Assembly: GCA_030040425.1 (NCBI GenBank) | Contig: JASHTS010000112.1 | Coordinates: 55,449 to 119,448 of the forward strand | DNA from: Acidobacteriaceae bacterium | GTDB lineage: Bacteria > Acidobacteriota > Terriglobia > Terriglobales > Acidobacteriaceae | Direction: 5' to 3' | DNA length: 64,000 nucleotides | In this document: positions 13,369 to 62,329 of the stretch, in pieces | How positions within the stretch are numbered: the first letter of the stretch is position 1 | Layout: the number at the start of each line of letters is the position of its first letter | Translations under genes and position numbers: made by a program | The notes under the pieces: generated by a model | What the model was told of the DNA's origin: nothing | What the model saw: the letters and a program-made list of their open reading frames with translations, nothing else | Databases searched by the model: none

Positions 13369-16300
13369 ATGGCGAACAAGGTCGGGAGCTTTATGCCTTC
13401 CTCGGAACGGCACAGCGGCATTCTGCGGCATTTGACGCCTCATTCGCTTTGGACCGCTGGATCGAAGTGCCGCAACGGCTTGAGTCTTTTCTTCCTGCTC
13501 TTGGTCGCGATCCCTTGCTCTGCCCAGTACAGCGGCAATGTGCAGGGAATCGTGACGGACCCGACACAGGCTGCCATTGCCAACGCGACCATCCATCTGC
13601 GCAGCGTGGAGACGGGCATCGTCCTGAGCACCACCAGCGACAATGCGGGCTTTTATCGCTTCAGCAGTCTCGCTCCGGGGAACTATGTTGTTTCGGCAAC
13701 GGCGCCCAATTTCAGGGAAGAAGAATCGCAATTCACGCTGAGCACTGCCGAGACCAAAGGCATCAATCTCACCATGCATTTGGCGTCAACCCAGGAGAAC
13801 GTCGTCGTCCAGGTAACGCCGCCGACGATCAACACCGACGACAGCCGCCTGGAAACAACCCTCGAAGCGCAGACCGTCCGCGACCTGCCCGAAGCCAATC
13901 GCAATCTGTGGGACACGCTGGCCGCAGCGCCGGGCGTCTCGGGAACGGGCACGCGCGCCCAGGGAGAATCACCGGGAGGGTTTGCGGATAACTTTGGAAC
14001 GCAGACCCCGGCGATCAGCGCCAACGGACGCAGCTATATCGGCAACGTGGTGATGGTTGACGGAATGAATGTGACGAGCCCGATTCAGAACGGAAATCTC
14101 ATTCTGTCCCCGATCCCGGAAGCGGTGCAGGAAGTAACCATGCAGACGAATTCCTGGGATGGAGACGTGAATCTCGGCAGCTCCATTCTCGTGCAGGTGA
14201 CGACAAAATCGGGCACCAACCAGTTTCACGGCGCGGGCAGCCTTTTTTATACGGACCAGAAACTCGAAGCCAACACCGAGTTCTCGAACGCAACTGCGGA
14301 TCTTCCCTTTGGGCGCAAGGATCTGGTCGGCGCTCTGGGCGGACCCATTTGGAAAAACAAGACCTTCTTCTTCGCCGACTTCGAGAAACTGTGGGCGACG
14401 ACTTCTGCCACGGCCAGCTCCGGTGCGCAGACATTTGAGGATCCGGCATTTGTTACATGGGCCAAAACCGCGTACCCCAGCACGGTCGGAACCGAGGTTC
14501 TCACCGGCTGGCCGGCAAAGTTTATGATTCCTAACGGCACCGTGGAAACTGCTTTGACCGCTTTCGGCGCAAGCAATTGCAGCGGGACCGGCGGCACGGG
14601 CGCGAGCACGGACATTCCTTGCAGCACCAATGCGATTGACACAGGAAATTTCGCGGCCAGCCCCTACTACAACGCCCTGCAGTACAACTTCCGCGTCGAT
14701 CAGTATTTCACTCCCAACGACCGCCTCTATCTGAGCTATTACAACGACAGCTTCACTCAGCAGCAGCTTTCTCCCAGAGAAGGTTTGCAGGCTGAGGACA
14801 TCATGGCGAACCGGTATGGGCAGATCGACTACACCCATACCTTCAACGCGAAGTTCCTGTGGGAGTCAGCCTTCGCCTTCGCCAGCGTGGGCGGCGCCAA
14901 TGGGCAGGATGCCGATTTGAAGGTACCGGCCATCACGGTTTCCGATATCTCCGAAGGTTTCCAGGTTGGCGGCGGATTTGGGCCGGGTGAGTACCGCGGT
15001 CCCATGTACAACTGGCGTTCCGTGTTAAGCCTGGTCCACGGCAGGCATGTATTGAAGTTTGGCTACGATGGGGCCAGAGGCATTGAACACGGCGACTTTA
15101 CTCCTGACTACGTGCGGCCCAGCTTCACCTTCGGCAACCTTCTGACCCTGGTGCAGGACACACCGGTGTCAGAATCGGCAACCTACAACCCGCTCACCGG
15201 ACAGCCGGCCAAAGTCGCTTTTGGCGGACAGGAGAATCCGTTTGGGTTTTACGTTCAGGACGACTGGAAAGCGCGGCCGAGTCTTGCCTTGACGATCTCC
15301 CTGCGCTGGGACGATTTTACGAATCACATTCCCTGGGGAAACAGCGGCTTCCAATTCAGCGCGCTGATGCTCGGGACCGCGGGTACATTCTCGGAACAGA
15401 TTGCCAACGCCGCGGTCGGTACCGTTCCCCAGGTATTTGCCAAGGACATGTCGAATGTCTTTAGCCCTCGCATTGGGTTCTCATGGGATCCCAGCGGCCG
15501 CGGGACCTGGGTGGTGCGCGGCGGAGTGGGCGTTTACCACGATTGGATTGCGATGGGCCAGACGGTCGACCAGACCCGTCTGAATCCCCCGGGCGTTATC
15601 GGCGCCACTTTTTACGAAGGCGGCACGGGAATCCAGCCGATCTTCGGGCTTGCGCCCTCGGGGACCTATCCTTTCAACTTTACCTTGCCAACCATCCCCG
15701 CAACCGGGTTGAACGCGGCCGGGGGCTTGCCTGGAGTGCAGGCGAGCGTGGATTCTCTTGACCGGAACATGGTGCCGCCACTCTCCGTAAACTACGTCAT
15801 CGGCGTCGAGCATGAATTGGCATTCAAACTGGTTGCCGGCGCGAGCTACTCCGGCTCCAAGGGCTACGACCAATTGACGGGCACCGATGAAAACCGCTAT
15901 GACGGGGGCGCGGTGGTCAGCGGAACAAGCGAAACCGTCAACCGCCTGAATCCCAATTTCGGCGCCATCACTTACGTGACCAATGCGCGCTACGCCAACT
16001 ACAACGCGATGATTCTCACCCTGCGCGGCAGGCAGGGAGCCAGGGGCAGTTTCCAAGCCTCTTACACCCTTGCCCAGGCCAAGGATTATCCCGAAGAGGG
16101 CACGCGGTTTGACCAGGATACCGGCAATATCCCCGAACCCGGCGCCTATTTCAGTTATTACGGGCTGGCAAACTATGATGTGCGCCAGCGTCTCTCGGCT
16201 TCCGGCGGTTATACCCTTCCGGGCATGAACAGCAATGCGATGGGAAGAGTCGTGACTTCCGGCTGGGAACTGACAAGCATCCTGGCTGCGCAGACGGGTT

Positions 16301-16740
16301 CGCCCTTCTGGGTTTTTAACACCAACCCGCCAACCGTTCCTGTCAACCCCGGCGACTATAACCTCGACGGCACCGACTGGGATGTGCCCAACAAGCCTAC
16401 TCAGAACTTCACCGGCGGCCATAGCCGTGCATCGTTCGAAAAAGGATTGTTCACGCAATCCGATTTTCCGGTCCCGGCTGCGGGCACGGAAGGCAATGAG
16501 CCGCGCAATATGTTCACTGGTCCGGGTATGGTCGAGGTGGATGCCAGTTTGCTCAAAAACACGCAGCTACCCCACCTGGGCGAGCAGGGCAACCTGCAAC
16601 TGCGATTTGACTTCATTAATCTGTTCAATCGCGTGAACCTCGGCCCGGTGGATGGGGATATGGCCGACGGAACTTTCGGACATTCCACCACCGCGCTGCC
16701 GGCGAGAGCTTTGCAAATGGGTGCGCGGTTCGCGTTCTGA
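13369..16740 (+). CDS. TonB-dependent receptor, Oar-like, with carboxypeptidase regulatory-like domain
   Basis: AGGAGG upstream of ATG; YSGNVQGIVTDPTQAAIANATIHLRSVETG; TonB receptor-like barrel ending RALQMGARFAF. Confidence 0.9.
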   Translation: MANKVGSFMPSSERHSGILRHLTPHSLWTAGSKCRNGLSLFFLLLVAIPCSAQYSGNVQGIVTDPTQAAIANATIHLRSVETGIVLSTTSDNAGFYRFSSLAPGNYVVSATAPNFREEESQFTLSTAETKGINLTMHLASTQENVVVQVTPPTINTDDSRLETTLEAQTVRDLPEANRNLWDTLAAAPGVSGTGTRAQGESPGGFADNFGTQTPAISANGRSYIGNVVMVDGMNVTSPIQNGNLILSPIPEAVQEVTMQTNSWDGDVNLGSSILVQVTTKSGTNQFHGAGSLFYTDQKLEANTEFSNATADLPFGRKDLVGALGGPIWKNKTFFFADFEKLWATTSATASSGAQTFEDPAFVTWAKTAYPSTVGTEVLTGWPAKFMIPNGTVETALTAFGASNCSGTGGTGASTDIPCSTNAIDTGNFAASPYYNALQYNFRVDQYFTPNDRLYLSYYNDSFTQQQLSPREGLQAEDIMANRYGQIDYTHTFNAKFLWESAFAFASVGGANGQDADLKVPAITVSDISEGFQVGGGFGPGEYRGPMYNWRSVLSLVHGRHVLKFGYDGARGIEHGDFTPDYVRPSFTFGNLLTLVQDTPVSESATYNPLTGQPAKVAFGGQENPFGFYVQDDWKARPSLALTISLRWDDFTNHIPWGNSGFQFSALMLGTAGTFSEQIANAAVGTVPQVFAKDMSNVFSPRIGFSWDPSGRGTWVVRGGVGVYHDWIAMGQTVDQTRLNPPGVIGATFYEGGTGIQPIFGLAPSGTYPFNFTLPTIPATGLNAAGGLPGVQASVDSLDRNMVPPLSVNYVIGVEHELAFKLVAGASYSGSKGYDQLTGTDENRYDGGAVVSGTSETVNRLNPNFGAITYVTNARYANYNAMILTLRGRQGARGSFQASYTLAQAKDYPEEGTRFDQDTGNIPEPGAYFSYYGLANYDVRQRLSASGGYTLPGMNSNAMGRVVTSGWELTSILAAQTGSPFWVFNTNPPTVPVNPGDYNLDGTDWDVPNKPTQNFTGGHSRASFEKGLFTQSDFPVPAAGTEGNEPRNMFTGPGMVEVDASLLKNTQLPHLGEQGNLQLRFDFINLFNRVNLGPVDGDMADGTFGHSTTALPARALQMGARFAF

Positions 16741-18960: not shown

Positions 18961-20634
18961 ATGAGCTACAATCCGCCACGGCAGAGAACGCCCGCGGCAC
19001 CCAAAGACCCGCTCGAGATCGATCTGGTCTACAACCTGCGCCCGTGCGGCACATGCGAGTTCTTCTGGCCTGACGTTCAGGCGACGCAGCCCTATGGCCC
19101 CTATCCTGCTTACGATTTCGAGCAAAACTTCCCCAAAGAAAATCTGCCTGGATCCGGCGCAGGTTCGTTTGTGTGGATCGACGGCTCGACGCAACCTCCG
19201 TGCTTTCCCGGACCCGAAGTTATGGATGGATGCCGCAAAGCGCCCATTATGACCATCGGCATCAATCCGAACCTGACCGCTTTTGGCCCGGGGACCACAG
19301 GCGCCTCATGGTGCTACCCGAATTTTTCAAGCGATGGCGGCACAGACGCATACGCGAAATATGCCTATTACTATCGCTACCGCTCGGTATACCAGGAGCA
19401 TTTCGCGCTGCCCTTCGCTGAAGACCATCTGGTGCAGGGGAGCGAGGTCAAGGCGCCGAAGGCGGGCGAGCTCAAGGGGTATACGCGCGGCGACGACTCA
19501 CCGGCCTTCGACATTCAAGTGCAATATGACGGAGAAACGGCGCCTTCCGCGATCCATCTTGCCGGAACGCTGGGCGGGCCGCAGTATGTTGTGCTCTTCA
19601 ATCTCGGAGCACGCTTCGCGGCGGGCGATGTATTAGCCGCAAAAATCAGCGTGCCGCCGGGCCTGCAGACCGATGTTTACCAGCAGGGCATCACTTACTA
19701 TACCCAGCTTCTTCCCGTGTTGAGCGCATTCGAGTCGTTTCTCGCCGGCAAGGGGCATGCCGGCGCGAAGCTCCGCGTGGGGGAAGATGTGGGTCAATTG
19801 GACATGGTGGCCTGTGCATCCCCTCATTGGGCGCCGCAATGGCTGGGCGGGACATCGCAGAGCGTCAACACGGTGGTGAAAAACTGCGTGCAGAAAAACG
19901 CCTGGGCGATGAAGCAGCTCCTGCAGACACGCCCTGCGATTCTGTTTCTCGTGGGCCAATCCTCGTGGACGATGTTCCGCCACTCTTTCGGACATCTGGT
20001 TAAAGGACCGCAGCCGTTGCCGGCAGTTCCTGAAGATGGTCCGTATACGCTCCTGAGCCTTACGACAAAAAACGAATACCGCATCCAGATATCGACGCAA
20101 ATTGGCTCGGCGGAGTACCAGCTTTCGACGCGCCTGGTCATCACGCCGCACTTCTCGTACGACTTCAACTTCTATCCGCAGTTCCGGCTCAGTTCCGATG
20201 ACTGGAGGGCATTTTCTGCCCAGAACGCTGCCGCCGCGAAGTTTCTTTCCACAGATCCTCGGCTGAGTTTTCAGCAACCACCCGGAGCTTACGTGGCAAT
20301 CGGCATTCCGCCTGCTGCGGGCAACGCGCTTCGAGAGTTCCAGAAGCAATTTGCGGCCGCTTATGCGGCGCTGCAGCCCTTCTTTTACGACCCACACAAC
20401 CAGATGGCCGCAGTGCTCGGCGATCTTTTTAACGGCGGGGAATTGACCTGGACTCCTGGCGACGGCCAGAGTCCCGGCTATTTATCGCGGGCCGACGGGC
20501 CATGCCAGTTTTGCGAAAACAGCCATTGGAAGTTTCCCCTGGGGTGCCCGTACGGCAAGCCGAAAGAAGAGCAATTTACCGTTGGATTTCTCGAGAACGT
20601 GGCTGCAAAGGTGATCGCAAGCGGAACCGGATAA
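18961..20634 (+). CDS. Uncharacterised Cys-rich protein with motifs resembling the uracil-DNA glycosylase superfamily
   Basis: CGTCEFFWP near N-term; PIMTIGINPNLTAFGPG (motif-A-like); LDMVACASPHWAPQW; ILFLVGQSSWTMFRHSF; VITPHFSYDF; C-terminal CQFCENSHWKFPLGCPYGK. CDS well supported; function tentative. Confidence 0.75.
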   Translation: MSYNPPRQRTPAAPKDPLEIDLVYNLRPCGTCEFFWPDVQATQPYGPYPAYDFEQNFPKENLPGSGAGSFVWIDGSTQPPCFPGPEVMDGCRKAPIMTIGINPNLTAFGPGTTGASWCYPNFSSDGGTDAYAKYAYYYRYRSVYQEHFALPFAEDHLVQGSEVKAPKAGELKGYTRGDDSPAFDIQVQYDGETAPSAIHLAGTLGGPQYVVLFNLGARFAAGDVLAAKISVPPGLQTDVYQQGITYYTQLLPVLSAFESFLAGKGHAGAKLRVGEDVGQLDMVACASPHWAPQWLGGTSQSVNTVVKNCVQKNAWAMKQLLQTRPAILFLVGQSSWTMFRHSFGHLVKGPQPLPAVPEDGPYTLLSLTTKNEYRIQISTQIGSAEYQLSTRLVITPHFSYDFNFYPQFRLSSDDWRAFSAQNAAAAKFLSTDPRLSFQQPPGAYVAIGIPPAAGNALREFQKQFAAAYAALQPFFYDPHNQMAAVLGDLFNGGELTWTPGDGQSPGYLSRADGPCQFCENSHWKFPLGCPYGKPKEEQFTVGFLENVAAKVIASGTG

Positions 20635-20684
20635 GAGAAAATGTGCGTGTTTGTTGCGCGCAATGAGTTTTCAACCAGGACACA

Positions 20685-21890
20685 TTGGAGCAATCGGGAA
20701 GCGAGAGCTCGAAGGAGAAAAGAGAGATGGCGGTTAAGACACTTTCCTATGCCGAAGAAACTCGTCTCAAATACGATCCTGAAAAAGCTGCGGCTCCGCC
20801 TGCAGGCCGGTTTGCCTCCGCAGCGGAAGCCGCGCGGGCAGCCGCCGCGGCAGGTCTTCCAGAGCCGGTACCGTGGCCTAAGGGGCTTGCTCCCACCGCG
20901 CAGCCGCTCAATCCCGCGCCGGCGGAAACGGACAGTCTGTCACGTTTTGCCGGTTACGACGCGGTGGTGATGACGTACACCTCTGCCGAGGCAGCTTCCC
21001 TCGCGGCGCTTTTCACTCCCGGACATCCTGTCTCTACCTGGTACGAATATCGCCACAACATCGATGCGTACGTACCCCTCGTTACCGGCCCTAACGCTCC
21101 ATTCAACAGCACCGAACGCGAGGACCAGCGCTACTACCACTCCCTTGGCCTCTATTTTCCGTGCACCATCGGCAGTGCGAAGGTGCTTCTGATCAAATCG
21201 GGCCTGCACATGGACTACGACACCAAGACACTGGCGCCCAATGGCGTGGTTCCTTATGGCAAGTTAGTCGCCGAGATCGTGCAAATCGTGAAGCCGAAGA
21301 TGTTCATCACCACCGGAACCGGCGGCGGCATCGGTTCTGACGTCAAGCTGGGCGATGTAATTGTCGCCGCACAGACACGCTTCGACTGCACTGACCAGTT
21401 CAAGTCGCAGAGCTGGGCGCAACAGTCCTACAAAACCAGCGCGCTGCCGGCTTCCACACTCGGGCTCATCACTCCGCAATTGACCAAAGCCAACGCACAG
21501 CACATCGCCGCGGCCACGCCCATCCCCGGACGGCCCGAGCCGAAAATCTGGTCAGCGAATTCCGCCATTGTGACCACCGACGTTTTTGCCTTCGATACGA
21601 GCAACAACTACTACAAGCTCCAGGGGCTCGGGCAAGTATGCGACATGGGCGATGCCATGGTGGGCCGCACGCTCTCGAAGTCTCCTGATGTCAAGTGGTA
21701 CGCGATCCGCAACGCGTCCGATCCGCAGGTCCCCATGTCCGGCAGCTCGGAGGCAGACTACAAGAAAGCCGACCAGGAAGCCGGAGACATTTACAAGAAG
21801 TTCGGCGGCTATACCACGGCGGCCAGCGTGGTTGCCACATGGGCAGTGATCGCCTCTTCCGGCGCGGCGGGAGCGCGTGGCAAGAAGTGA
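20685..21890 (+). CDS. Nucleoside phosphorylase (PNP/UDP/MTAN)-like protein
   Basis: KMFITTGTGGGIGSDVKLGDVIVAAQTRFDC, IVTTDVFAFDTSN, VCDMGDAMVGRTL, WYAIRNASDPQVP. Listed start at 20685; ATG at 20727 (MAVKTLSYAEETRLKYDPEK), preceded by AAGGAGAAAAGAGAG, is the more likely start. Confidence 0.72.
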   Translation: MEQSGSESSKEKREMAVKTLSYAEETRLKYDPEKAAAPPAGRFASAAEAARAAAAAGLPEPVPWPKGLAPTAQPLNPAPAETDSLSRFAGYDAVVMTYTSAEAASLAALFTPGHPVSTWYEYRHNIDAYVPLVTGPNAPFNSTEREDQRYYHSLGLYFPCTIGSAKVLLIKSGLHMDYDTKTLAPNGVVPYGKLVAEIVQIVKPKMFITTGTGGGIGSDVKLGDVIVAAQTRFDCTDQFKSQSWAQQSYKTSALPASTLGLITPQLTKANAQHIAAATPIPGRPEPKIWSANSAIVTTDVFAFDTSNNYYKLQGLGQVCDMGDAMVGRTLSKSPDVKWYAIRNASDPQVPMSGSSEADYKKADQEAGDIYKKFGGYTTAASVVATWAVIASSGAAGARGKK

Positions 21891-21927: not shown

Positions 21928-23712
21928 TTAGGCGAGTGAAATTCTCAGCGCCGCAGCGTAGCTGTTCGCAACGGACAATCCATAAGGCAGGTGCAGATGC
22001 AGAGCGTCGGCGTCCTGAGTCCACTTCACCTCGGCATCCGAGCCGAGCACGGTAATGTTCTGCACCTTGCCCGGGTTGGTTTTGCTTGATGTTCCCAGCG
22101 ACGCAATCTGTGCATGCGATTCCGGCCATCCCATGAAGATGGCGTAGATCACGTTATTCGCCTTGTTGCGCGTGAAGCGGATGTCTTTGCTTCCCAACGC
22201 GCTGATGCTGGCGCCCTGGAAGGGTCCGCTGGTGACTGCATTCGGCCCCTCGCCGTAAACGGTCCACGGGCGCGTCTCGAAGATGGCTTCGCCGTTTACC
22301 TTCAGCCATGCGGCAACTTCATTGAGGACGGCCATCTCTTTGCTGTCGATGGTGCCGTCGGGCTTGCCCGGAATATTGAGAATGAACGTGCCGTTCTTGC
22401 TCACCGTATCGACCAGCCAGTGAATTACGTCGCGAGGCGGCAGGTAGCCCCCAAATGCGCCGGGGCCCTCAAAAAGGCTGCGCCGGTAGTGCCACTCTCC
22501 AATGCATGTTTCGGACTGCCAAGCGTAGGGCATGATGCCGCTCGTCAAACCTCGCTCGTAGTCGGCCACCACGGCCTTGGCCAGCTTGTCGGGCACGTTC
22601 TTGATGTTCAGCACCGCTTCCATCTTGCCGCGCGTCTTGAGGTTGTGGTTGTAGAAATATGCACCTAAATTCATGCCGCCCCAGCCCAGCGGAAGCAGCG
22701 GATTATCGAAGTACAGCAGGTCGGGATCGTGCTGGTCGATCAGGTCCCGCGTGCGATCATAGAAATTCTTCACATAGGAAGCATCGGGCAGCGCATCCTT
22801 GGGGTGCTTCGCGCTATAAAGCATCTGTGGATCGAGCCCGTCCCACCATTGGTTCTTGCCTTCTGCCTTGGTCATTCGCCCGTCGTACGGTACTCCTGCA
22901 TACGGCCCGCTCTTGTCTGCTCCATGCGAAGTCTGGAACCACCACCAGTTGCGCGCCTGGTGCACGGTCACGCCGAACCGCAGTCCCTGCCTTCGCGCCG
23001 CCGCTGCCCAATCGCCGACCACATCGCGATGCGGCCCGTGGCTCACGGCATTCCAGGGCTGATGTTTCGAGCCCCAGGTATCAAAGCCGTCGTGGTGATT
23101 GGCAAGCGCAATGAACAGGCGCGCTCCGGCGTTCTTATAGCGTTCGATCAGCGCCTCCGGCTCCCAGTTCAGCAGCGTCCATTGCGCGCAAAGGTCCTTG
23201 TACCCGAACTCGGAGGGGTGGCCGTAGTGCGCGTTCTGGTAGCGGTAGTCGGGTGAGTCCTCTTCATACATGTTGCGCGCGTACCAGTCGCCGTACTCGG
23301 GCACACATTGCGGGCTCCAGTGCGCCCAGATGCCGAACTTGGCGTCGCGGTACCACTCGGGAGCCTCATATTGCAGCAGGGAATCCCAATTTGCCTGATA
23401 CGGCCCCTCGCCGTTAAGCCCTTCCACCGGAGCCTGCATGGGAACACCATCCCATGAGCCGCCGGGTAATGCGGGCGGGTCGCCCCACGCTGTGGGCGAC
23501 CAGTCGGCATTATCCAGCCTCTTCTCGACAATATTGCCGTCAACCAGCGCGTAGAAGATGCGCTGGCTCTCCGGTGTGGCACAGAACTCCGCGTAGGTCT
23601 GATGGAGCTGGTTGAAGCCTGAGGGCGCGCCCGCAGCCGATTGCCCTTTTGCAGGCATGGCTCCGGCTGCCGCGGCAGCGGCGATCAGCTTGCAGAACTC
23701 TCTTCTTTGCAT
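21928..23712 (-). CDS. Alpha-L-fucosidase (GH29), probable Tat/Sec export signal
   Basis: MQRREFCKLIAAAAAAGAMPAKGQ; WYRDAKFGIWAHWSPQCVPEYGDWYARNMY; LFIALANHHDGFDTW; LLYFDNPLLPLGWGG; NGTFILNIPGKPDG. Confidence 0.87.
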   Translation of the reverse strand: MQRREFCKLIAAAAAAGAMPAKGQSAAGAPSGFNQLHQTYAEFCATPESQRIFYALVDGNIVEKRLDNADWSPTAWGDPPALPGGSWDGVPMQAPVEGLNGEGPYQANWDSLLQYEAPEWYRDAKFGIWAHWSPQCVPEYGDWYARNMYEEDSPDYRYQNAHYGHPSEFGYKDLCAQWTLLNWEPEALIERYKNAGARLFIALANHHDGFDTWGSKHQPWNAVSHGPHRDVVGDWAAAARRQGLRFGVTVHQARNWWWFQTSHGADKSGPYAGVPYDGRMTKAEGKNQWWDGLDPQMLYSAKHPKDALPDASYVKNFYDRTRDLIDQHDPDLLYFDNPLLPLGWGGMNLGAYFYNHNLKTRGKMEAVLNIKNVPDKLAKAVVADYERGLTSGIMPYAWQSETCIGEWHYRRSLFEGPGAFGGYLPPRDVIHWLVDTVSKNGTFILNIPGKPDGTIDSKEMAVLNEVAAWLKVNGEAIFETRPWTVYGEGPNAVTSGPFQGASISALGSKDIRFTRNKANNVIYAIFMGWPESHAQIASLGTSSKTNPGKVQNITVLGSDAEVKWTQDADALHLHLPYGLSVANSYAAALRISLA

Positions 23713-23900
23713 CGTCCTTCTCTCCTTTTTGCTTCGTGGTATCGGGCCAGATGGCCGCGATACGTCGAACGGACTTGCACTAGCCCGGCTGTTTCCATTG
23801 CCGGATCACGTCCGAGGAGCTTCTCCGCTTCTTCGATTCCGCTATGACACCACAACGGCAACATGCATCCAAAGCAGATTTTTCCCAATCAAATTCGAGA

Positions 23901-24974
23901 TTACGATCGCTCTTCACTCGAAGTTGGACAAACCGCAACTTTACCGCAGCGGCCTGAAGCCATGAGACGGTAGGCTTCATCGGCCTGATCGAGGGAGAAG
24001 CGGTGAGTGACGATCTCTTCCGGGTGCAGGTTCCAGCGAACCAGCCTCTCCACCAACTCCTCCATCAGCCACGTCGACGTGACCCAGGATCCGTAAATGG
24101 CCTTCTGGTCGTGAATCAAATCGGGCGATGGATTGAACGCGACCGTGCCGCCCTCGCCCACCATGACCATCCTTCCCCATTTGCGCGTGGCGCGCAGAGC
24201 GGCGGCGCGGGCTTCGGCATTGCCGGAGCAATCGATGGCGCGTTCCACGCCTTTGCCGCCGGTAAGGTCGCGAACCTGGCCTGCGTTCTGCGGCCCGGCG
24301 GCGAGAACGGAATCGCAGAGACCCAGGCGGACAGCAAGGTCGCGGCGTTCGGCGGAAAGATCGATGCCGATGATCTTTTCCGCGCCCAGCTTGCGGCACA
24401 AGGCTCCCGCCGCCAGGCCCACGGGGCCAAGTCCGGTGATCAGCACCGCATGATTGCCATCGATTCCCACCTTCTGAAGCGCTTCGTAGACGGTGCCGAA
24501 GCCGCAGGCTACCTGCGCGCCATCAAGATAGGTAAGCGAGTCGGGAAGGTCGATCAGGTCCTTCTCTTCGGCGAGCAGGTATTCGGCCATGCCGCCATCG
24601 CGCTGCCATCCATAAGCGCGGCGATATTCCGCGCTGCTGCAGGAGATCATGTACCCGCGGCGGCAATCGTTGCACACCCCGCACCCCGAGATGTGATAGA
24701 CGATCACGCGATCGCCTACCTTCAAGCGGCGGCAGCCCGCGCCGGCCGCTACGATCTGTCCCGCCGGTTCGTGCCCGGCGATCACGCCCTGGTACCCTTC
24801 AGGACCTTTACCCAGGTGCTGGTGATAGATGGCCCGGATATCGGAGCCGCAGATGGTGGAAGCTTTGACGGCGAGGAGCATTTCGCCATGGCCTGGCTCC
24901 GGTACCGGAACTTCCCTTATCTCCACAGTGCTATTGCCCGGGAGAAACGCTGCTTTCATCGTTGTCTTGATCAT
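23901..24974 (-). CDS. Zinc-dependent medium-chain alcohol/sugar dehydrogenase
   Basis: [49 protein letters not shown] (structural Zn), [14 protein letters not shown]. Confidence 0.87.
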
Positions 24975-25117
24975 CTCGTCCGGCTCCCGCCTCCGGCGCG
25001 TGTGAATCGCAACGGATAAGCGCGCGTTGTGACGCCACGTTTAATTCCTCCGGAGACCGACATTCGCGCGCCGATTCCATGCCGGCGCAGTTGCTCCGTT
25101 CTCTTCGTCCACTGGCG

Positions 25118-26131
25118 CTACTTCCGTTGCGAAGACGCCCGAACGATCAGTTGAGGCTCGAGCACGACCTTGCGGCTGCGGCTTGAGGCATCTTTCTCGA
25201 GCAGCCGCGCAATCATGCGCGCCGTGCGCTCGCCGATTTCGACGGCGCGCTGGTCCACGCTCGTGAGTGGAACCTGCAGCTTGCTGCTGTAGTGGTAGTT
25301 TCCGCAGCCGACGATCGCCAGATCTTTGGGGATCGATATGCCGGCCTCGAAGGCTTTGAACATCGCGCCCACCGCGATGGTGTCATTGAAGCAGAACAGA
25401 CCGTCGGGCTGTACCTTGAGGGCGAGAATCGCTTCCATGGCTCGGCGGCCGCGGGTTTCGCCGTCGGATTCAGAGGAATCGCCTGCGGAGATGATGTATT
25501 CAGGAGGCGCAGCGATGCCATGGCGTTGAAGGGTGTCGCGATAGCCCTGGGCACGATTGTTGCCCACGCTCGTGGCCGATCCGCGGATGTGCGCGATGCG
25601 CCGGCAACCCTGGCTGATGAGATGCTCGGTGGCCAGCTCGCCCACCTTGTAATCGTTAACGCCCACAAAGTTGGAATCGAAGCCGGGAAACCTGCGGTCG
25701 ATCAGGACGAGAGGCACGGACTCGCCGATGCTGGGCAGTGACTCGCTGCTTTCCTGGCAGGATGCCAGCACCAGGCATTCGAGGTGATGGGCAAGTATGT
25801 GATCGATCTCATCCTGTTCGAGCTTGGGATCGCTCTCCGATGACGTCACGATCACGTAGTAACCCATATCGCGGAGCGCCGTGGAAAGTCCCTTGGCAAT
25901 CTCGCCGAAGAAGGGATGGATCAAGTCGGGAACCACGAGGCCGATGAGCGAACTGCGGCCGGTGACCAGACTGCGCGCCGCAAGGTTTGGCCGGTAGTTC
26001 AGTTCCCTCACCCGATCGAGGATGCGGGCCTTTGTCTCGCTGGCAATATCGGGCCGGTCCCGCAGCGCGCGCGACACCGTGACCACGGACACACCGAGCT
26101 CGTTTGCAATGTCTTTCAGCCGGACATTCAT
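25118..26131 (-). CDS. LacI family transcriptional regulator
   Basis: MNVRLKDIANELGVSVVTVSRALRDRPDIASETKARILDRVRELNYRPNLAARSL N-terminal HTH plus periplasmic-binding-like effector domain. Confidence 0.95.
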   Translation of the reverse strand: MNVRLKDIANELGVSVVTVSRALRDRPDIASETKARILDRVRELNYRPNLAARSLVTGRSSLIGLVVPDLIHPFFGEIAKGLSTALRDMGYYVIVTSSESDPKLEQDEIDHILAHHLECLVLASCQESSESLPSIGESVPLVLIDRRFPGFDSNFVGVNDYKVGELATEHLISQGCRRIAHIRGSATSVGNNRAQGYRDTLQRHGIAAPPEYIISAGDSSESDGETRGRRAMEAILALKVQPDGLFCFNDTIAVGAMFKAFEAGISIPKDLAIVGCGNYHYSSKLQVPLTSVDQRAVEIGERTARMIARLLEKDASSRSRKVVLEPQLIVRASSQRK

Positions 26132-32652: not shown

Positions 32653-35600
32653 CTAGTAATAGAACTTCAGGCTCATCTGTAACTGGCGCGTGCACGGCTG
32701 GCCGTTTTGACATGTGCGTTGGCTTGTGGCTTGTCCGTAAGTGGTGTCTGTGCTGTTCGCATCCGGGGGATTGAAAACAACGTTGTTGAAGAGATTGAAC
32801 GATTCGGCCCGGAACTCAAAATATCGCTGTTCTCCGAGTCCTATATGGAAATCGCGGAACAGGGACATGTCCACGTCGTTGTAATGTTGCGAAGCGAGGA
32901 AGTTCACTTTTTCATTGCCATAGGCGTACCCGGGAATCGCGAAGGCATTTGTATTGAACCACTCCTTTTGGGTGTGCACGGATCCGCCGTTCGGGTTTCC
33001 AATCACATTCATGCGCTCCTGATTGATGCCGCCTACATTCTCCGGGTCGCCGCCGGCGGTTACCGTGTAAGGCTGCCCCGAAGTTTCCTGCACGATGCCG
33101 TTCAGCGCCCATCCGCCCGCCATGGCGGAGACAAACTTGCTGGAGGATCGGTTGAATGGCGAGGCCGCGGTGAATGCCGCTGTAAACACGTTCGTCTGGT
33201 TGAGGTCTGAGGTGCCGTAGCTGCTGGCCTTGTCATAGGGATTCTGCTCGTCGCAGCTTGCGCCCAGGTTGCAGCCGTCGGCATTGGTGTGCGAAAGCGT
33301 GTAGGCCGCCAGGAAGGTGACTCCATGTGTGGCGCGTTCCTGCACGGTGACCTGCAGGGCGTTGTAACGGCTGTTGCCGGCGCTCTGATCGAACCATTGC
33401 GGCTGCATGTAAGGATATGGCCGCCGGGCTTGCTGGTTGCCCGGCCCAGGCTGAGGCACGTTCATGGCCGGCCCCCAGTCCTCATGCCTGCCGTTCGAAC
33501 CGACGTAGTTCGCATCGAGAGTCATGTTGCCCGGCAGCTGCCGTTCGATGCCCGCGTTCCACTGATCGAAAACCGGAGTCTGAAAACTCGGATCGACCAT
33601 CCACTGGCTCACCTGACTGAAGTCGTTGATCGGATACACGATCGCTCCGCCGCTGCCAAATTGCAGCGGATCGGCGGCGGTCACCGTAGGCAGAGCGGAA
33701 TTTAGATTGCTGTTGTCGATGGTATTCACCGCCGGCCAGTTTCCGCCGAAGTTCTGCGAGAGCTGGGTGATGTCAGCCCACTCGTCGTAGAAGCGGCTGT
33801 AGGCCGCGCGGATCACCGTCTTGTCGTTGAGCCGGTAGGCCACCCCAAGCCGCGGAGCCCAGTCGGCCAGCGAGTTTTTGATCACGCGGAGACTGGGGCT
33901 GACATAGGCGTTCGGCGGAAGTCCACCGGGAGCCGGCGTGCTCGATGCGGTGTAGGTGCCGGTGGGAATGCACGGCGCGCCCTGGGTTGCCGAGCAGTCC
34001 GGCGGAAGCGCGTTGAGCTCGTATTTCCCGGTGATGGGGTTGGCATTGCCGGTGTAGAAATTGCCGCCGTGACCGGTGCCATAAATCGGAGTGAAGACCA
34101 TGTCATTGCGGAATCCGAGATTGACGGTGAGACGGTCCGTCGCCTTGAACTGGTCTTCGACGTAGATCCCGTTGATCCAGCCGCCCCAGACATCTTCGAA
34201 GATATTCCGGTAGGTGCCTCCGTTCGGATAGCCGAGCAGCAGTGACGCCCAGCTATTGCCCCCGGTGCTGGTTGCCCCCAGGCTCGATGTTTGCTGCGGC
34301 TCGAAATCATCGCCGGCATAGGCGATCGGCGAAGTGAAGTTATTGGTTTCGAAATCGGCGCCCGCCTTGATCGTGTGCCTGCCGATGATCTTCGAGAATG
34401 CGCCGCCGAACTGCCAGTCATCCCCCAAACCGGAACCCTGCAACTGCGAGCCACCCAGGCCGATATAGCCGCCTCCTGCCGTATATTGCGGCGAGTAGAG
34501 CTTGTTGTTCAGGGTCATCCAGTAGGTCGACATCCCGTCCGACTGCAATTGCGACAAGAATCCCGAGGTCACGCCGGGCCAGGTGGTGCCGGTGGTGGTG
34601 AATCCATAATTTCTGCCGAAGTACACATCGGAAAAGGTCGTTGGACTGAATTCGTGCGTCCAGTGGCCGATGTAGTTGTGACCGGGGACATGCACGAAAG
34701 CGCTGCCGATCGTATCCGATGGCGACGTCTTGAACAGATCGAACTGGCTGTAGCGGAAGTAGACCTGGTTATTGTTGCCGAAGTTCTGGTCGACTCTGAG
34801 CGTTCCCGAATTCTGGGTGTAATCGGTGTTCTGGGGGTAGTAGAGGTTTCCTCCGTTGACGATCGTCGAGCTGCCGGTGGGAATGATCGAGAGGAAGAGC
34901 ATCGAGATCGGGCTGATCCGGTTGGGCGAGCCCGGGGTTGCGCTGTACGCGGCGGTTGAGCCCGCTCCTGGAATACAGTTGATGTCGCCGTTGCAATACG
35001 CTGGGTTCGGTTCGCTGTACTCCTGGGTAAAGCTTTCGCGCGTGTAGTTGCCACTGCTGAGGACCGTCGTCTCCGGGTCGTAAATGGTTGCGCCCACTCC
35101 GCTGAAGTCGCCCGCGTCCATTGCGGCCGTGGGCGCCAGCGCGGGGGTTTCGCTCTTGGAGGCGTACCGGTAGCCTTCCCATGCCAGATAGAAGAAGGTG
35201 TGGTTCTTGCCGTTGTACAGCTTTGGAATTGAGAGGGGACCGCCGGCAGAAGCGCCAAACTGGTTCTGCCGCAGGGGCTCGCGAGCGGTCTCGAAGTAGC
35301 CGCGCGAATCCATCACCTGGTTGCGCAGGAACTCCCAAAGAGCGCCGTGGTACTGGTTGGTTCCGGACTTCGTGACTACGCTCACCTGGGCTCCCGCGGC
35401 CCCGCCGTATTCAGCCAGGTCGTTGTGACCCTGGCTTTTGAACTCCTGAATGGCGTCGACGATCGGCGCATAGTTGTAAGTACCGGAAAGCGTGTTCAGG
35501 TCGTTGGCGCCATCGAGGATGAACATGTTGCTGCGGTTGCGGGCGCCATTCACTGCCGGGAAGCTGAACTGCCCGATCGACGCACCATTCCAACCGCCGC

Positions 35601-36156
35601 CGCCGCCGCTGTTCTGGTCGGTATTGAGGTTCACGGTACCCGGCAGGATGGTCAACAACTGGGTGAAGTTTCGGCCGTTTAGCGGCAGGTCGCTCACATC
35701 TTTCGGCGCCACAACCGTCCCCAATTCAGAGGTTGAAGTCTCCAGCGCCGGCGCGATGGCGTCGACGGTAACCGTACTGGAGGTCGCGCCGACCTTCAGT
35801 TGAAAGTCGAAGGTCGCAGTCTGGCCGACTTCGAGGGTCACCGCCGGCTGCGTCACCGTTGAAAATCCGGAGGCCGATGCCTGCATGCTGTAAGCCCCCG
35901 GAACCACGCTTGGGAAATCGTAGATTCCGGCGGTATTGCTGGCCGTTCTCCGCACCACACCGGTGTTGACGTTCGTGAGCTCAACTTGCGCATTCGCGAT
36001 TGCGGCGCCGCTTGGATCCTTGACGACGCCGTTGACGTCCGCGGTCGCTTGTTGGGCCACGCCGGCCGGGGCCATCAAGCCTGCGATGCTGAAAACTACC
36101 GCCAGCAGGCCGAGATTCCAGTGCCTGTTCCTCAGCATTCCCGCCAGAGCCTCCAT
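32653..36156 (-). CDS. TonB-dependent receptor, Oar-like, with carboxypeptidase regulatory-like domain
   Basis: ADVNGVVKDPSGAAIANAQVELTNVNTGVVRRTASNTAGIYDFPSVVPG; DVSDLPLNGRNFTQLLTILPG; barrel ending LQMSLKFYY. Confidence 0.92.
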   Translation of the reverse strand: MEALAGMLRNRHWNLGLLAVVFSIAGLMAPAGVAQQATADVNGVVKDPSGAAIANAQVELTNVNTGVVRRTASNTAGIYDFPSVVPGAYSMQASASGFSTVTQPAVTLEVGQTATFDFQLKVGATSSTVTVDAIAPALETSTSELGTVVAPKDVSDLPLNGRNFTQLLTILPGTVNLNTDQNSGGGGGWNGASIGQFSFPAVNGARNRSNMFILDGANDLNTLSGTYNYAPIVDAIQEFKSQGHNDLAEYGGAAGAQVSVVTKSGTNQYHGALWEFLRNQVMDSRGYFETAREPLRQNQFGASAGGPLSIPKLYNGKNHTFFYLAWEGYRYASKSETPALAPTAAMDAGDFSGVGATIYDPETTVLSSGNYTRESFTQEYSEPNPAYCNGDINCIPGAGSTAAYSATPGSPNRISPISMLFLSIIPTGSSTIVNGGNLYYPQNTDYTQNSGTLRVDQNFGNNNQVYFRYSQFDLFKTSPSDTIGSAFVHVPGHNYIGHWTHEFSPTTFSDVYFGRNYGFTTTGTTWPGVTSGFLSQLQSDGMSTYWMTLNNKLYSPQYTAGGGYIGLGGSQLQGSGLGDDWQFGGAFSKIIGRHTIKAGADFETNNFTSPIAYAGDDFEPQQTSSLGATSTGGNSWASLLLGYPNGGTYRNIFEDVWGGWINGIYVEDQFKATDRLTVNLGFRNDMVFTPIYGTGHGGNFYTGNANPITGKYELNALPPDCSATQGAPCIPTGTYTASSTPAPGGLPPNAYVSPSLRVIKNSLADWAPRLGVAYRLNDKTVIRAAYSRFYDEWADITQLSQNFGGNWPAVNTIDNSNLNSALPTVTAADPLQFGSGGAIVYPINDFSQVSQWMVDPSFQTPVFDQWNAGIERQLPGNMTLDANYVGSNGRHEDWGPAMNVPQPGPGNQQARRPYPYMQPQWFDQSAGNSRYNALQVTVQERATHGVTFLAAYTLSHTNADGCNLGASCDEQNPYDKASSYGTSDLNQTNVFTAAFTAASPFNRSSSKFVSAMAGGWALNGIVQETSGQPYTVTAGGDPENVGGINQERMNVIGNPNGGSVHTQKEWFNTNAFAIPGYAYGNEKVNFLASQHYNDVDMSLFRDFHIGLGEQRYFEFRAESFNLFNNVVFNPPDANSTDTTYGQATSQRTCQNGQPCTRQLQMSLKFYY

Positions 36157-38577: not shown

Positions 38578-40002
38578 ATGATCCGTGGAGCTGGACTCTT
38601 TTTGTTCTTGGCAGGACTGCTGATGCCGGCCGGCAGATTGTGCACGGCACAGGAACACGCCCCGTACGAACCGACGCTCGCATCGCTGGACAGTCACCCG
38701 CTTCCCCAGTGGTATGCGGGAGCGAAGCTGGGGATCTTCATTCACTGGGGACTGTATTCGGTGCCCGGATGGGCGCCTTTGTCGCATCCCAGCCACGATT
38801 TTACGAGCGCGGACTACATCAAGAACAATCCCTACGCGGAGTGGTACTTGAATGTCATGCGCATTCCCGGCTCGCCCACACAGGCCTATCACCGCGAGCA
38901 CTACGGCGCAAATTTCAGCTATTACGACTTCGCTCCCATCTTCAATCGCGAGTCAAAAAAGTGGAACCCCGACGAATGGGCAAAAATCTTCCGCGACGCA
39001 GGGGCGCGCTATGTGGTGCTGACCACGAAGCACCACGATGGCTTCACGCTGTGGCCGAGCACCACGGTGAATCCCAATCCCTCGATCCCGCAAAATGAGC
39101 GGCACGCGGAGCGCGACATTGTGGGCGAACTTACTGCGGCCGTTCGCCAGCAGGGGTTGAAGATGGGGCTCTATTACTCCGGCGGGTACGACTGGACGTT
39201 CAACTCGGGCCCCATCGAAACCGCCGCAGACTACGAGGCAGCAAAACCGGAAACCCAGGCCTACGGGGACTACGCCTTCGCGCAGATTCACGAACTGATC
39301 GATCGTTATCACCCTGCGGTTCTGTGGGACGACATCGACTGGCCGAAGACCGGCCGGCCGATGCAGGTTGAGGCCGACTACTACAACGCCGTGCCGGATG
39401 GAGTGATCGACGATCGATTCGGAATCAAGCACGCCGATTTTGTTTCGCCGGAGTATCAGAATCTGGACAAGATCAGCGCGAAGAAGTGGGAGGAGTGCCG
39501 CGGCCTGGGAAGGTCCTTTGGCTATAACCGCGCCGAAGGCGAGGCAGAGACCATCGCTCCCGCCGATCTGATCGCCTTGCTGGTAGACATTGTGAGCAAG
39601 AACGGCAACCTGCTGCTGGACGTTGGGCCTGAGGACGATGGAACCATTCCGCCGGTGCAGATGGAACGGTTGAAGGCTCTGGGCGCATGGCTCAAGCAAA
39701 ATGGCGAAGCCATCTACGACACCGTGCCCTGGGAGCGCGCCGTGGGCAAGACGGTCGAAGGCGACGACCTGCGCTTCACGCGCAAGGGAAGCGATCTCTA
39801 TGTGACCATCCTGGGAGCTCCGAAGGGGCGAACGGCGACGATCGTGGGTGTGGCCGCGCGGCCAGGCATGCAGGTGACCATGCTGGGCCACGCCGAGCCG
39901 CTGGAGACGCGCGCGGCGGGCGATAACCTTCAGGTGACGCTGCCCGCGCATCTGCCCGGGAACTACGCTTATGTGCTGAAGCTTGCCGGCTACGCGCAGT
40001 GA
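38578..40002 (+). CDS. Alpha-L-fucosidase (GH29), secreted
   Basis: WYAGAKLGIFIHWGLYSVPGWAPL, YVVLTTKHHDGFTLWPS, LWDDIDWPKTG, NGNLLLDVGPEDDGTIP. Confidence 0.95.
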   Translation: MIRGAGLFLFLAGLLMPAGRLCTAQEHAPYEPTLASLDSHPLPQWYAGAKLGIFIHWGLYSVPGWAPLSHPSHDFTSADYIKNNPYAEWYLNVMRIPGSPTQAYHREHYGANFSYYDFAPIFNRESKKWNPDEWAKIFRDAGARYVVLTTKHHDGFTLWPSTTVNPNPSIPQNERHAERDIVGELTAAVRQQGLKMGLYYSGGYDWTFNSGPIETAADYEAAKPETQAYGDYAFAQIHELIDRYHPAVLWDDIDWPKTGRPMQVEADYYNAVPDGVIDDRFGIKHADFVSPEYQNLDKISAKKWEECRGLGRSFGYNRAEGEAETIAPADLIALLVDIVSKNGNLLLDVGPEDDGTIPPVQMERLKALGAWLKQNGEAIYDTVPWERAVGKTVEGDDLRFTRKGSDLYVTILGAPKGRTATIVGVAARPGMQVTMLGHAEPLETRAAGDNLQVTLPAHLPGNYAYVLKLAGYAQ

Positions 40003-61471: not shown

Positions 61472-62329
61472 TTATCCATCCACATCCACGTCGCCGGGCA
61501 TAAGCTGGCAGCGCGGGCACCAGAAGGTGACGCGCGCGTCTGCACCCTGCAGACGGCGGCGCACCGGTTCACCGCAGCGGCGGCAGGGCTCGCCGTGACG
61601 GCCGTAGACCCAGAGGCTTTCGCGCGGGTCCGAAGCATGGGTCGTCCGGCGCTGCAGGCCGCGGTACGTGACGATGAGATTGCCGGAGTCTTCAAGGACG
61701 TTCGCGGCGACGAGCTTCTGCGCGGCGGCGACGATCGCGTGAATCTGCGCGGGCGCGAGCGACGCCACCGGCGCGAAAGGATGAACGCCGGTGACGAAGC
61801 ATATCTCCGATTTGAAGACGTTGCCCACGCCGGCGACGACTTTCTGATCGAGAAGTACATCGCCGATGGCCTCGCCCGCACGGGCGACGACGCGGCCGAC
61901 GGCTTCTTCGGCGTCGAACTGCGCGCTTAAGACGTCGGTGTCCGGCTGCGGAATGCGCCGGTCGCGGGCGAGCGACTGCGCGGTGTGCATCTCGGCTACA
62001 GGCACTTTGAAGCCGACCGCGAGGTAGTTCGCGTTCTCGAGGACGATGCGCATGTAGAAACGCGGCTTCTGCCAGCGCTCGCCGGGCCGATAGATGTGCC
62101 AGCTCCCGTTCATGAGCATGTGCGTGGCCAGGGTGAGGCCGCCGGAGAAATGAATGAGCATCCACTTGCCGCGCGCGTCGACACTGTCGACAAGCTGGCC
62201 GGTGAGCGGGGTTTCATCGTGGAAGCGCGTGAGCGTGGGAAAGACACTATGGAAGCCAGTGATGGGCTTGCCGGCAAGGGCGCGGGAGAGCGAGCGCGCG
62301 GTGCGGAAGATGGTATCGCCTTCGGGCAT
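61472..62329 (-). CDS. Fpg/Nei family DNA glycosylase (endonuclease VIII-like)
   Basis: MPEGDTIFRTARSLSRALAGK (PE catalytic N-terminus); VVAGVGNVFKSEICFVTGVHPF; C-terminal zinc finger CRRCGEPVRRRLQGADARVTFWCPRCQ. Confidence 0.95.
   Translation of the reverse strand: MPEGDTIFRTARSLSRALAGKPITGFHSVFPTLTRFHDETPLTGQLVDSVDARGKWMLIHFSGGLTLATHMLMNGSWHIYRPGERWQKPRFYMRIVLENANYLAVGFKVPVAEMHTAQSLARDRRIPQPDTDVLSAQFDAEEAVGRVVARAGEAIGDVLLDQKVVAGVGNVFKSEICFVTGVHPFAPVASLAPAQIHAIVAAAQKLVAANVLEDSGNLIVTYRGLQRRTTHASDPRESLWVYGRHGEPCRRCGEPVRRRLQGADARVTFWCPRCQLMPGDVDVDG

What the first reader, a model, noticed from the sequence alone, without database searches (positions are those of the whole stretch)
18961..21890. 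Candidate two-gene base/nucleoside-processing module: UDG-superfamily-like Cys-rich protein plus divergent nucleoside phosphorylase
Seen: co-directional genes 50 nt apart (92 nt to the preferred downstream start) inside a glycan island. The first has, in order, GINPNLTAFGPG, LDMVACASPHW, FLVGQSSWTMF and TPHFSY, an order reminiscent of UDG-superfamily motif A, central strand and motif B; it also has CxxC near the N-terminus and CxxC-x9-C at the C-terminus that could bind a metal or Fe-S cluster. The second has nucleoside phosphorylase-type GTGGGIGSDVKLGDVIVAA and ASDPQ motifs. Inference: a base-releasing or nucleotide-sensing enzyme coupled to a phosphorolysis/N-glycosidase enzyme, for salvage, repair or defence. 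I do not recognise this pairing as a described system.
Basis: partly seen in the sequence, partly recalled or inferred. Interest (0 to 1): 0.72.

Follow-up and report, generated by a model that had tools for sequence, protein, structure and literature searches.

The report
UDG-fold Fe-S protein paired with nucleosidase
Two neighbouring genes encode an unusual relative of the DNA-repair enzyme uracil-DNA glycosylase and a nucleosidase-type enzyme; relatives of the two sit side by side or are fused into one protein in bacteria of many phyla and in one archaeal bin, so they very probably work together at removing bases from nucleotides or nucleic acid, but what for is not known.

Summary
The two genes and motifs are real; one spacing is CxxC-x10-C, not x9.

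Gene 1 (18961-20634, 557 aa) has no Pfam hit of its own. With 53 relatives it falls in the UDG superfamily: Pfam UDG hits 15 of 54 members, PDB Foldseek ranks 1-7 are all UDG/TDG, and profile alignment puts C285, C309 and H397 on the Fe-S cysteines and motif-B His of family-4 UDGs. It fits no numbered UDG family: motif A is GINPN, eight cysteines are (nearly) invariant, and the protein is acidic. The base-reading Asn of UDGs is Asp in 43 of 43 relatives of clades I+II (window's side) and Asn in 11 of 11 of clade III; in E. coli Ung, N123D creates cytosine excision.

Gene 2 (20727-21890) is a PF01048 protein, closer to hydrolytic MTA/SAH nucleosidase than to phosphorylase.

The pairing is conserved: a gene-2 homolog lies near gene 1 in 32 of 59 loci, same strand in all 20 unfused pairs measured, fused in 8. 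Many relatives sit in larger loci with DNase II, nucleobase-deaminase-like, phosphoesterase, second UDG and oxygenase-like genes; the window keeps only the pair. I infer a two-enzyme base-release module; its role (nucleic-acid dismantling, specialised metabolism or defence) is open.

The parts
18961..20634 (+). Gene 1: divergent UDG-superfamily protein, 557 aa, eight (nearly) invariant cysteines
   Evidence: ORF; family of 54; PF03167 in 15/54 members; Foldseek PDB ranks 1-7 UDG/TDG
19045..19056 (+). C29-x2-C32, predicted first half of a family-4-type Fe-S site
   Evidence: Invariant in 54/54; place and order as in family-4 UDGs, but not aligned by profile because of a long insertion
19231..19233 (+). 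C91 of GCRKAP, possible ligand of a second Cys4 site with C515/C518/C529
   Evidence: Invariant in 54/54; metal role inferred only
19258..19272 (+). Motif A, GINPN (residues 100-104), with the Mug/TDG-type catalytic Asn N102
   Evidence: G, N, P, N invariant in 54/54; aligned with Mug GINPG (P 0.0099) and family-4 GE[AG]PG (P 0.11)
19801..19815 (+). Motif 3: D281 (base-reading position) to C285 (third Fe-S Cys)
   Evidence: hhalign pairs D281 with the motif-3 Asn and C285 with the Fe-S Cys of family-4 UDGs; D in 43/43 and N in 11/11 by clade
19885..19887 (+). C309, predicted fourth Fe-S ligand
   Evidence: Invariant 54/54; aligned with the fourth family-4 Cys
20143..20160 (+). Motif B, TPHFSY (H397)
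   Evidence: H in all 53 rows with a letter; aligned with the His of TYHPA in family-4 UDGs
20503..20547 (+). C-terminal C515-x2-C518-x10-C529, possible second metal site
   Evidence: C in all 53 rows with letters; metal role inferred
20712..20717 (+). AAGGAG, likely ribosome-binding site of gene 2
   Evidence: Sequence; 9 nt before ATG 20727
20727..21890 (+). Gene 2: MTA/SAH-nucleosidase-like member of PF01048, 387 aa
   Evidence: PF01048 E 1.4e-8; profile finds MTAN structures at E 1.3e-9
21315..21329 (+). GTGGG loop without the phosphate-binding Arg of phosphorylases
   Evidence: Column 196 is I/T/V in 29/29
21708..21725 (+). RNASDP: R328, N329, S331 and the catalytic Asp D332
   Evidence: R, N, S, D invariant in 29/29; aligned with the SD of MTAN

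Best explanation
The pair is a two-enzyme base-release module. Gene 1 is a new, divergent family of the UDG superfamily with a family-4-like Fe-S cluster and probably a second Cys4 metal site. Gene 2 is a hydrolytic nucleosidase of the MTAN type. Each is predicted to break an N-glycosidic bond. The acidic UDG-like enzyme probably acts on nucleotides, single strands or oligonucleotides rather than scanning duplex DNA; its Asp at the base-reading position suggests a substrate other than uracil (cytosine or another base that donates hydrogen bonds there). The nucleosidase acts on free nucleosides or nucleotides. Shown by computation: superfamily membership of both, the conserved and fused pairing, and the recurrent nucleic-acid and nucleobase-type neighbours. 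Inferred: catalysis, metals, substrates, and that the module dismantles nucleic acid or nucleotides.
For: UDG membership: PF03167 is the only family that recurs widely among members (15/54, best E 2.1e-4); AlphaFold2 pLDDT 94.8 and pTM 0.93, with TthUDG 1ui0 and six TDG entries as PDB ranks 1-7; hhalign with acidobacterial family-4 UDGs P 7.7e-4, placing D281, C285, C309 and H397 on the motif-3 Asn, two Fe-S Cys and motif-B His; controls with unrelated families P 0.19-0.35. Nucleosidase. Coupling: fused in L008, L009, L017, L018, L020, L026 (cut by contig end), L027, L036; 20/20 unfused pairs on one strand, several overlapping; background three PF01048 genes in 4.56 Mb. Neighbours: DNase II (PF03265 E 1.7e-77), guanine-deaminase-like amidohydrolase fused to the UDG-like domain (L055, L057, L068), a second, UNG-like protein (E 1.6e-23), metallophosphoesterase. 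Acidity: median pI 5.4 against 8.7 and 9.7. Specificity: D/N partition and N123D in Ung (PMC3989344).
Against: Foldseek E-values are modest (best 9.4e-3), probably because of long insertions. No activity, metal or substrate is shown. The N-terminal CxxC was not placed by profile alignment. Some neighbours have nothing obvious to do with bases (ferritin-like, GMC oxidoreductase, subtilase, decarboxylase). The gene-2 family occurs without gene 1 nearby in 5 of 396 genomes searched, and clade II of gene 1 mostly lacks gene 2.
Confidence: 0.6

Rival explanations
1. Specialised-metabolite or catabolic enzymes: the pair cleaves nucleoside-like intermediates in a small-molecule pathway that also uses oxygenase-like, ferritin-like, GMC, DyP, decarboxylase and phosphoesterase enzymes.
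For: Neighbouring ~250-aa protein has a dimeric alpha/beta-barrel fold (anthrone-oxidase-like, E 1.4e-6); ferritin-like protein (PF12902) in 11 loci; DyP peroxidase and a PSD-type decarboxylase; GMC oxidoreductase in 8 loci; LysR regulators beside five loci.
Against: No core synthase or carrier genes were recognised among the neighbours inspected; DNase II, UNG-like, ComEC-like and caspase-like genes do not suit a biosynthetic cluster; the window has only the pair.
Confidence: 0.3
2. Defence or cell-suicide module: base-releasing effectors destroy invader or own nucleotides or DNA on a signal.
For: PF01048 effectors degrading (d)ATP are known in several defence systems (PMC10952713) and PF01048 domains occur in conflict systems (PMC7159879); a neighbouring MBL protein matches LmuA and Avs1a profiles, an EACC1-associated-type caspase and an S8 peptidase occur; patchy spread and mix-and-match fusions.
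Against: Gene 1 has no PADLOC hit and gene 2 only a weak one; nine of ten partner proteins scanned have none; no relative in phage records or viral contigs; no sensor or NTPase core recognised; LysR regulators at five loci suggest induction by small molecules.
Confidence: 0.25
3. DNA repair glycosylase with a salvage partner.
For: UDG fold with motif A, motif 3 and motif B landmarks conserved.
Against: Acidic protein, unlike DNA-binding UDGs; the genome already has a canonical UDG; very patchy distribution (one of 58 other same-genus genomes); motif-3 Asn replaced by Asp.
Confidence: 0.06
4. UDG resemblance is convergent and gene 1 is another Rossmann-like Fe-S protein with a structural role.
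For: Weak E-values; large insertions; hmmsearch of the family profile finds no PDB sequence.
Against: Agreement of Pfam, fold and motif or cysteine register.
Confidence: 0.08

Closest known systems
Family-4 UDG (UdgA) and UdgX
   Same: Order CxxC - motif A - N/D-x3-C - C - motif-B His; best PDB fold match is TthUDG 1ui0; C285, C309 and H397 align
   Different: Motif A GINPN instead of GE[AG]PG or GEQPG; motif B PHFSY instead of HPA/HPS; D281 instead of Asn; four further conserved Cys; long insertions; acidic; UdgX R-loop not searched for separately
Family-2 Mug/TDG
   Same: Motif A GINP with the catalytic Asn and a downstream Phe; TDG entries are PDB ranks 2-7
   Different: Mug/TDG motif A is GINPG; here it is GINPN, with conserved cysteines and a different motif B
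MTA/SAH nucleosidase (MTAN) of the PF01048 superfamily
   Same: Catalytic Asp (D332) and probably Glu (E88) positions and the glycine loop; profile E 1.3e-9 to 6if8
   Different: Longer (387 against about 230 aa), far below NCBIfam MTAN cut-offs (23 against 169 bits), ribose-binding Glu replaced by D or G
PF01048 (d)ATP-degrading defence effectors (Cap17/Detocs)
   Same: Same Pfam superfamily (PMC10952713)
   Different: No TIR/SLOG-type partner and no sensor seen; direct relationship not tested
Conflict systems of Kaur et al. 2020 (PMC7159879)
   Same: PF01048 domains used as modules; DNA-glycosylase domain occasionally seen in GAP1-N1 systems
   Different: None of the core components (MoxR-vWA, VMAP, DO-GTPase, GAP1) recognised in these loci; the main text does not contain the words uracil or UDG

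Membership tests
UDG superfamily (PF03167) | Sequence similarity to the Pfam model | tested here: inconclusive
   Window protein itself 0 hits; 15 of 54 relatives hit PF03167, best E 2.1e-4, the only widely recurrent family
UDG superfamily (PF03167) | UDG alpha/beta fold | tested here: met
   AlphaFold2 pLDDT 94.8; PDB Foldseek ranks 1-7 UDG/TDG, prob 0.75-0.85, E 9.4e-3 to 4.1e-2; a phage UDG is rank 2 in the viral library
UDG superfamily (PF03167) | Motif A, motif 3, motif B in order with catalytic residues | tested here: met
   GINPN, D281/N, H397 conserved and in register; motif A register itself is weak (P 0.0099 to Mug, 0.11 to family 4)
UDG family 4 (UdgA) | Motifs GE[AG]PG and HPAAVL-like (PMC10359453) | tested here: not met
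   GINPN and PHFSY
UDG family 4 (UdgA) | Four Fe-S cysteines | tested here: inconclusive
   C285 and C309 aligned; C29/C32 invariant and in order but not aligned by profile; cluster itself not testable
UDG family 2 (Mug/TDG) | Motifs GINPG and MPSSSAR/NPSGL | tested here: not met
   GINPN, motif B PHFSY
UdgX | GEQPG motif A and KRRIH R-loop | tested here: not met
   Motif A is GINPN or LNPN in all members; R-loop not searched separately
UDG superfamily (PF03167) | Removes a base from DNA | not testable with these tools
   Needs an enzyme assay
PF01048 phosphorylase/nucleosidase superfamily | Pfam gathering score | tested here: met
   34.8 bits against 25.1; 21 of 29 relatives match
MTA/SAH nucleosidase | NCBIfam equivalog cut-off | tested here: not met
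   23.2 bits against 169; 18.1 against 73.8
Nucleoside phosphorylase | Phosphate-binding Arg before the glycine loop | tested here: not met
   Column is I/T/V in 29/29; position of the Arg in phosphorylases from own knowledge
Known anti-phage defence systems (PADLOC) | Model match | tested here: not met
   Gene 1 none; gene 2 weak PDC-M60C, 20.1 bits

The most novel reading that the evidence does not exclude
Gene 1 founds a new UDG-superfamily family with two Cys4 metal sites in which nature has made the N-to-D switch that gives engineered Ung cytosine specificity. Coupled or fused to a nucleosidase, it is the core of an undescribed, horizontally spreading, modular system that strips and converts nucleobases (with DNase II, a second UDG and guanine-deaminase-like partners).
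Probability: 0.2. Interest if true: 0.85.

Novelty: new variant of a known kind. Interest (0 to 1): 0.6.

Why it matters
UDGs are textbook repair enzymes. A widespread, acidic, cysteine-rich family of them that is linked or fused to a nucleosidase and often sits with DNase II and base-deaminase-like enzymes would mean the fold has a second life outside repair. The strict Asp/Asn split at the base-reading position makes substrate choice directly testable with one residue change, and a natural cytosine-type glycosylase would interest base-editing and epigenetics work. It also gives a family definition to proteins now annotated as hypothetical or, in Burkholderia, wrongly as 'GTPase'.

Tried and rejected
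Single-sequence searches of gene 1 in Pfam, NCBIfam, PADLOC, PHROGs and PDB sequences gave nothing useful; the profile against PDB sequences also gave nothing. Phage origin rejected: no viral contig or phage hit. Recent acquisition from base composition: G+C of the pair (0.58-0.59) is that of its surroundings, so patchiness, not composition, argues for transfer. C-terminal CxxC-C as the family-4 cluster rejected in favour of C29/C32/C285/C309. An automatic column mapping of the hhalign result used the wrong column set and was discarded; residue pairings were read from the printed alignment. Global N-terminal profile alignments failed. Literature searches for this pairing found no description; only open-licence papers are searchable. 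Whole genome not available as a file. A GDPD-like neighbour (about 20 loci) seems by eye to have lost its catalytic His, so it was not used as evidence for a phosphodiesterase step.

Full report
The finding describes two co-directional genes. Both are there as described: gene 1 at 18961-20634 and gene 2, best started at ATG 20727 behind AAGGAG, ending at 21890. The only slip is the C-terminal cysteine spacing (x10, not x9). A same-genus genome contig (G033:C27, 143,898 bases) has the length and the homolog of record JAKAFB010000001.1, titled Acidobacteria bacterium, so the window is very probably acidobacterial.

Identity of gene 1. Alone, the protein hits nothing useful. A search of 99 related genomes found one good homolog and one compact one, and a scan of 84,980 species found 56 loci in Acidobacteriota, Bacteroidota, Pseudomonadota, Planctomycetota, Lentisphaerota, Spirochaetota, Actinomycetota, Thermodesulfobacteriota, Myxococcota, others, and one archaeal bin. 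Because the scan used two peptide patterns, 56 is a lower bound. In the 54-sequence alignment C29, C32, C91, G100, N102, P103, N104, R139, D276, C285, S287, W290 and C309 are invariant, and C515, C518, C529 and H397 are present wherever the row has letters.

Three tests place the family in the UDG superfamily. First, 15 of 54 members hit PF03167, best E 2.1e-4; no other family recurs in more than two. Second, the AlphaFold2 model (pLDDT 94.8) finds TthUDG 1ui0 and six TDG structures as PDB ranks 1-7, with TmUDG, UdgX and a second TthUDG (2d3y) further down; E-values are modest (9.4e-3 at best), probably because the family carries long insertions. Third, hhalign against family-4 UDGs collected from acidobacterial genomes gives P 7.7e-4. 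The compact clade alone gives P 0.0029 with the same register at motif 3 and the third Fe-S Cys, and unrelated control families give 0.19-0.35. In the alignment, D281 falls on the motif-3 Asn, C285 and C309 on the third and fourth Fe-S cysteines, and H397 on the motif-B His. Motif A GINPN aligns with Mug GINPG at P 0.0099. Family definitions were taken from PMC10359453 and PMC10776899; the motifs match none of the families compared.

Two features set it apart. C91, C515, C518 and C529 are four more conserved cysteines that could form a second metal site (inferred). The motif-3 position is Asp in 43 of 43 members of clades I and II (clade I is the window's group) and Asn in 11 of 11 of the compact clade III. 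In E. coli Ung the change N123D yields an enzyme that excises cytosine (PMC3989344), so a substrate other than uracil is a reasonable, untested prediction. The family is acidic (median pI 5.4) while the family-4 UDG cores (8.7) and Mug proteins (9.7) compared are basic, and the genome has its own canonical UDG; both argue against a repair role on duplex DNA.

Identity of gene 2. PF01048 at E 1.4e-8; 21 of 29 homologs match. The family profile finds MTA/SAH nucleosidases in the PDB at E 1.3e-9. E88, S331 and D332 are invariant, and the position that holds a phosphate-binding Arg in phosphorylases is I/T/V (Arg position from own knowledge), so a hydrolytic nucleosidase is more likely than a phosphorylase. 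It is far below the NCBIfam MTAN cut-offs, so it is not filed as an MTAN.

Pairing. A gene-2 homolog lies in the held DNA around gene 1 in 32 of 59 loci; several of the others are cut by contig ends (L013, L028, L029). In the 20 unfused pairs measured, including the window, both genes are on one strand, several overlapping; order is mostly gene 2 then gene 1, reversed in the window, L021 and L030. The two are fused in eight loci, among them the Burkholderia pyrrocinia megaplasmid, where the protein is annotated 'GTPase'; in the tree these form one clade, so one fusion event suffices. Background: three PF01048 genes in 4.56 Mb of the window's genome. From the other side, five of 396 phylum genomes carry the gene-2 family without gene 1 nearby, one of them next to DNase II, so the nucleosidase can exist alone. 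Clade II of gene 1 mostly lacks gene 2.

Larger loci. Recurrent neighbours: a ~250-aa protein of no known family with a dimeric alpha/beta-barrel fold (AlphaFold2 pLDDT 95.8; anthrone-oxidase-like and other oxygenase-like matches) in 31 loci; GDPD-like in 21; a ~306-aa unknown in 18; metallophosphoesterase and ferritin-like (PF12902) proteins in 11 each; ComEC-like MBL in 8; amidohydrolase closest to guanine and deoxyadenosine deaminases in 8, fused to gene 1 in L055, L057 and L068; GMC oxidoreductase in 8; subtilase in 7; DNase II in 6; UNG-like in 6. Some of these counts include the odd hit that is probably unrelated (for example the L013 GDPD). The ~250-aa family was not found in the window's genome, which is only about 75% complete, and none of the profiled partners lies in the window, so the window holds the pair alone.

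Reading. What is best supported is a coupled base-release pair. The neighbours lean towards nucleic acid and nucleobases, with oxidative enzymes that fit specialised metabolism and a few pieces (MBL related to LmuA and Avs1a, EACC1-associated-type caspase, S8) that fit conflict systems. I cannot decide between these. Literature searches found no description of this pairing, but only open-licence papers could be searched.

Noticed in passing
L008:13825-16767: Burkholderia pyrrocinia plasmid pBPJTT protein WP_258285636.1, annotated 'GTPase', is the nucleosidase-UDG fusion; it lies near tyrosinase, DNase II, metallophosphoesterase, ferritin-like and four R-body (RebB) genes.
   Followed up: partly
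L022:7653-20952: Pseudovibrio denitrificans locus continues on the other strand with a DUF2063-like protein, a DUF692-like (MNIO) protein, a second ferritin-like protein and a decarboxylase homologous to the PSD-type one of L034; looks like a small-molecule or RiPP cluster beside the module. The DUF names are read by eye, not tested.
   Followed up: partly
L037:6179-7774 and homologs in about 20 loci: GDPD-like proteins whose catalytic His and Glu residues appear replaced, with a lectin-like C-terminal part; possible pseudo-enzyme, fused to the 250-aa domain in L054.
   Followed up: no
L037:2870-3772, L010:2498-3598; also L032, L042, L055, L057: UNG (family 1)-like proteins with GNDPY motif A but altered YH and HPSP motifs, near the new UDG-like gene.
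   Followed up: partly
L110:8818-11209: Gene-2 family protein directly followed by a DNase II gene, without the UDG-like gene, in another genome of the same phylum.
   Followed up: partly
window 21928-26131: Alpha-L-fucosidase, zinc-type dehydrogenase and LacI regulator on the minus strand; a second fucosidase-like gene near 38578 (by eye); outer-membrane beta-barrel proteins at 13369-16740 and, by eye, about 32653-36156.
   Followed up: partly
window 61472-62329: Minus-strand ORF beginning MPEGDTIF, which by eye looks like an Fpg/Nei-type DNA glycosylase.
   Followed up: no
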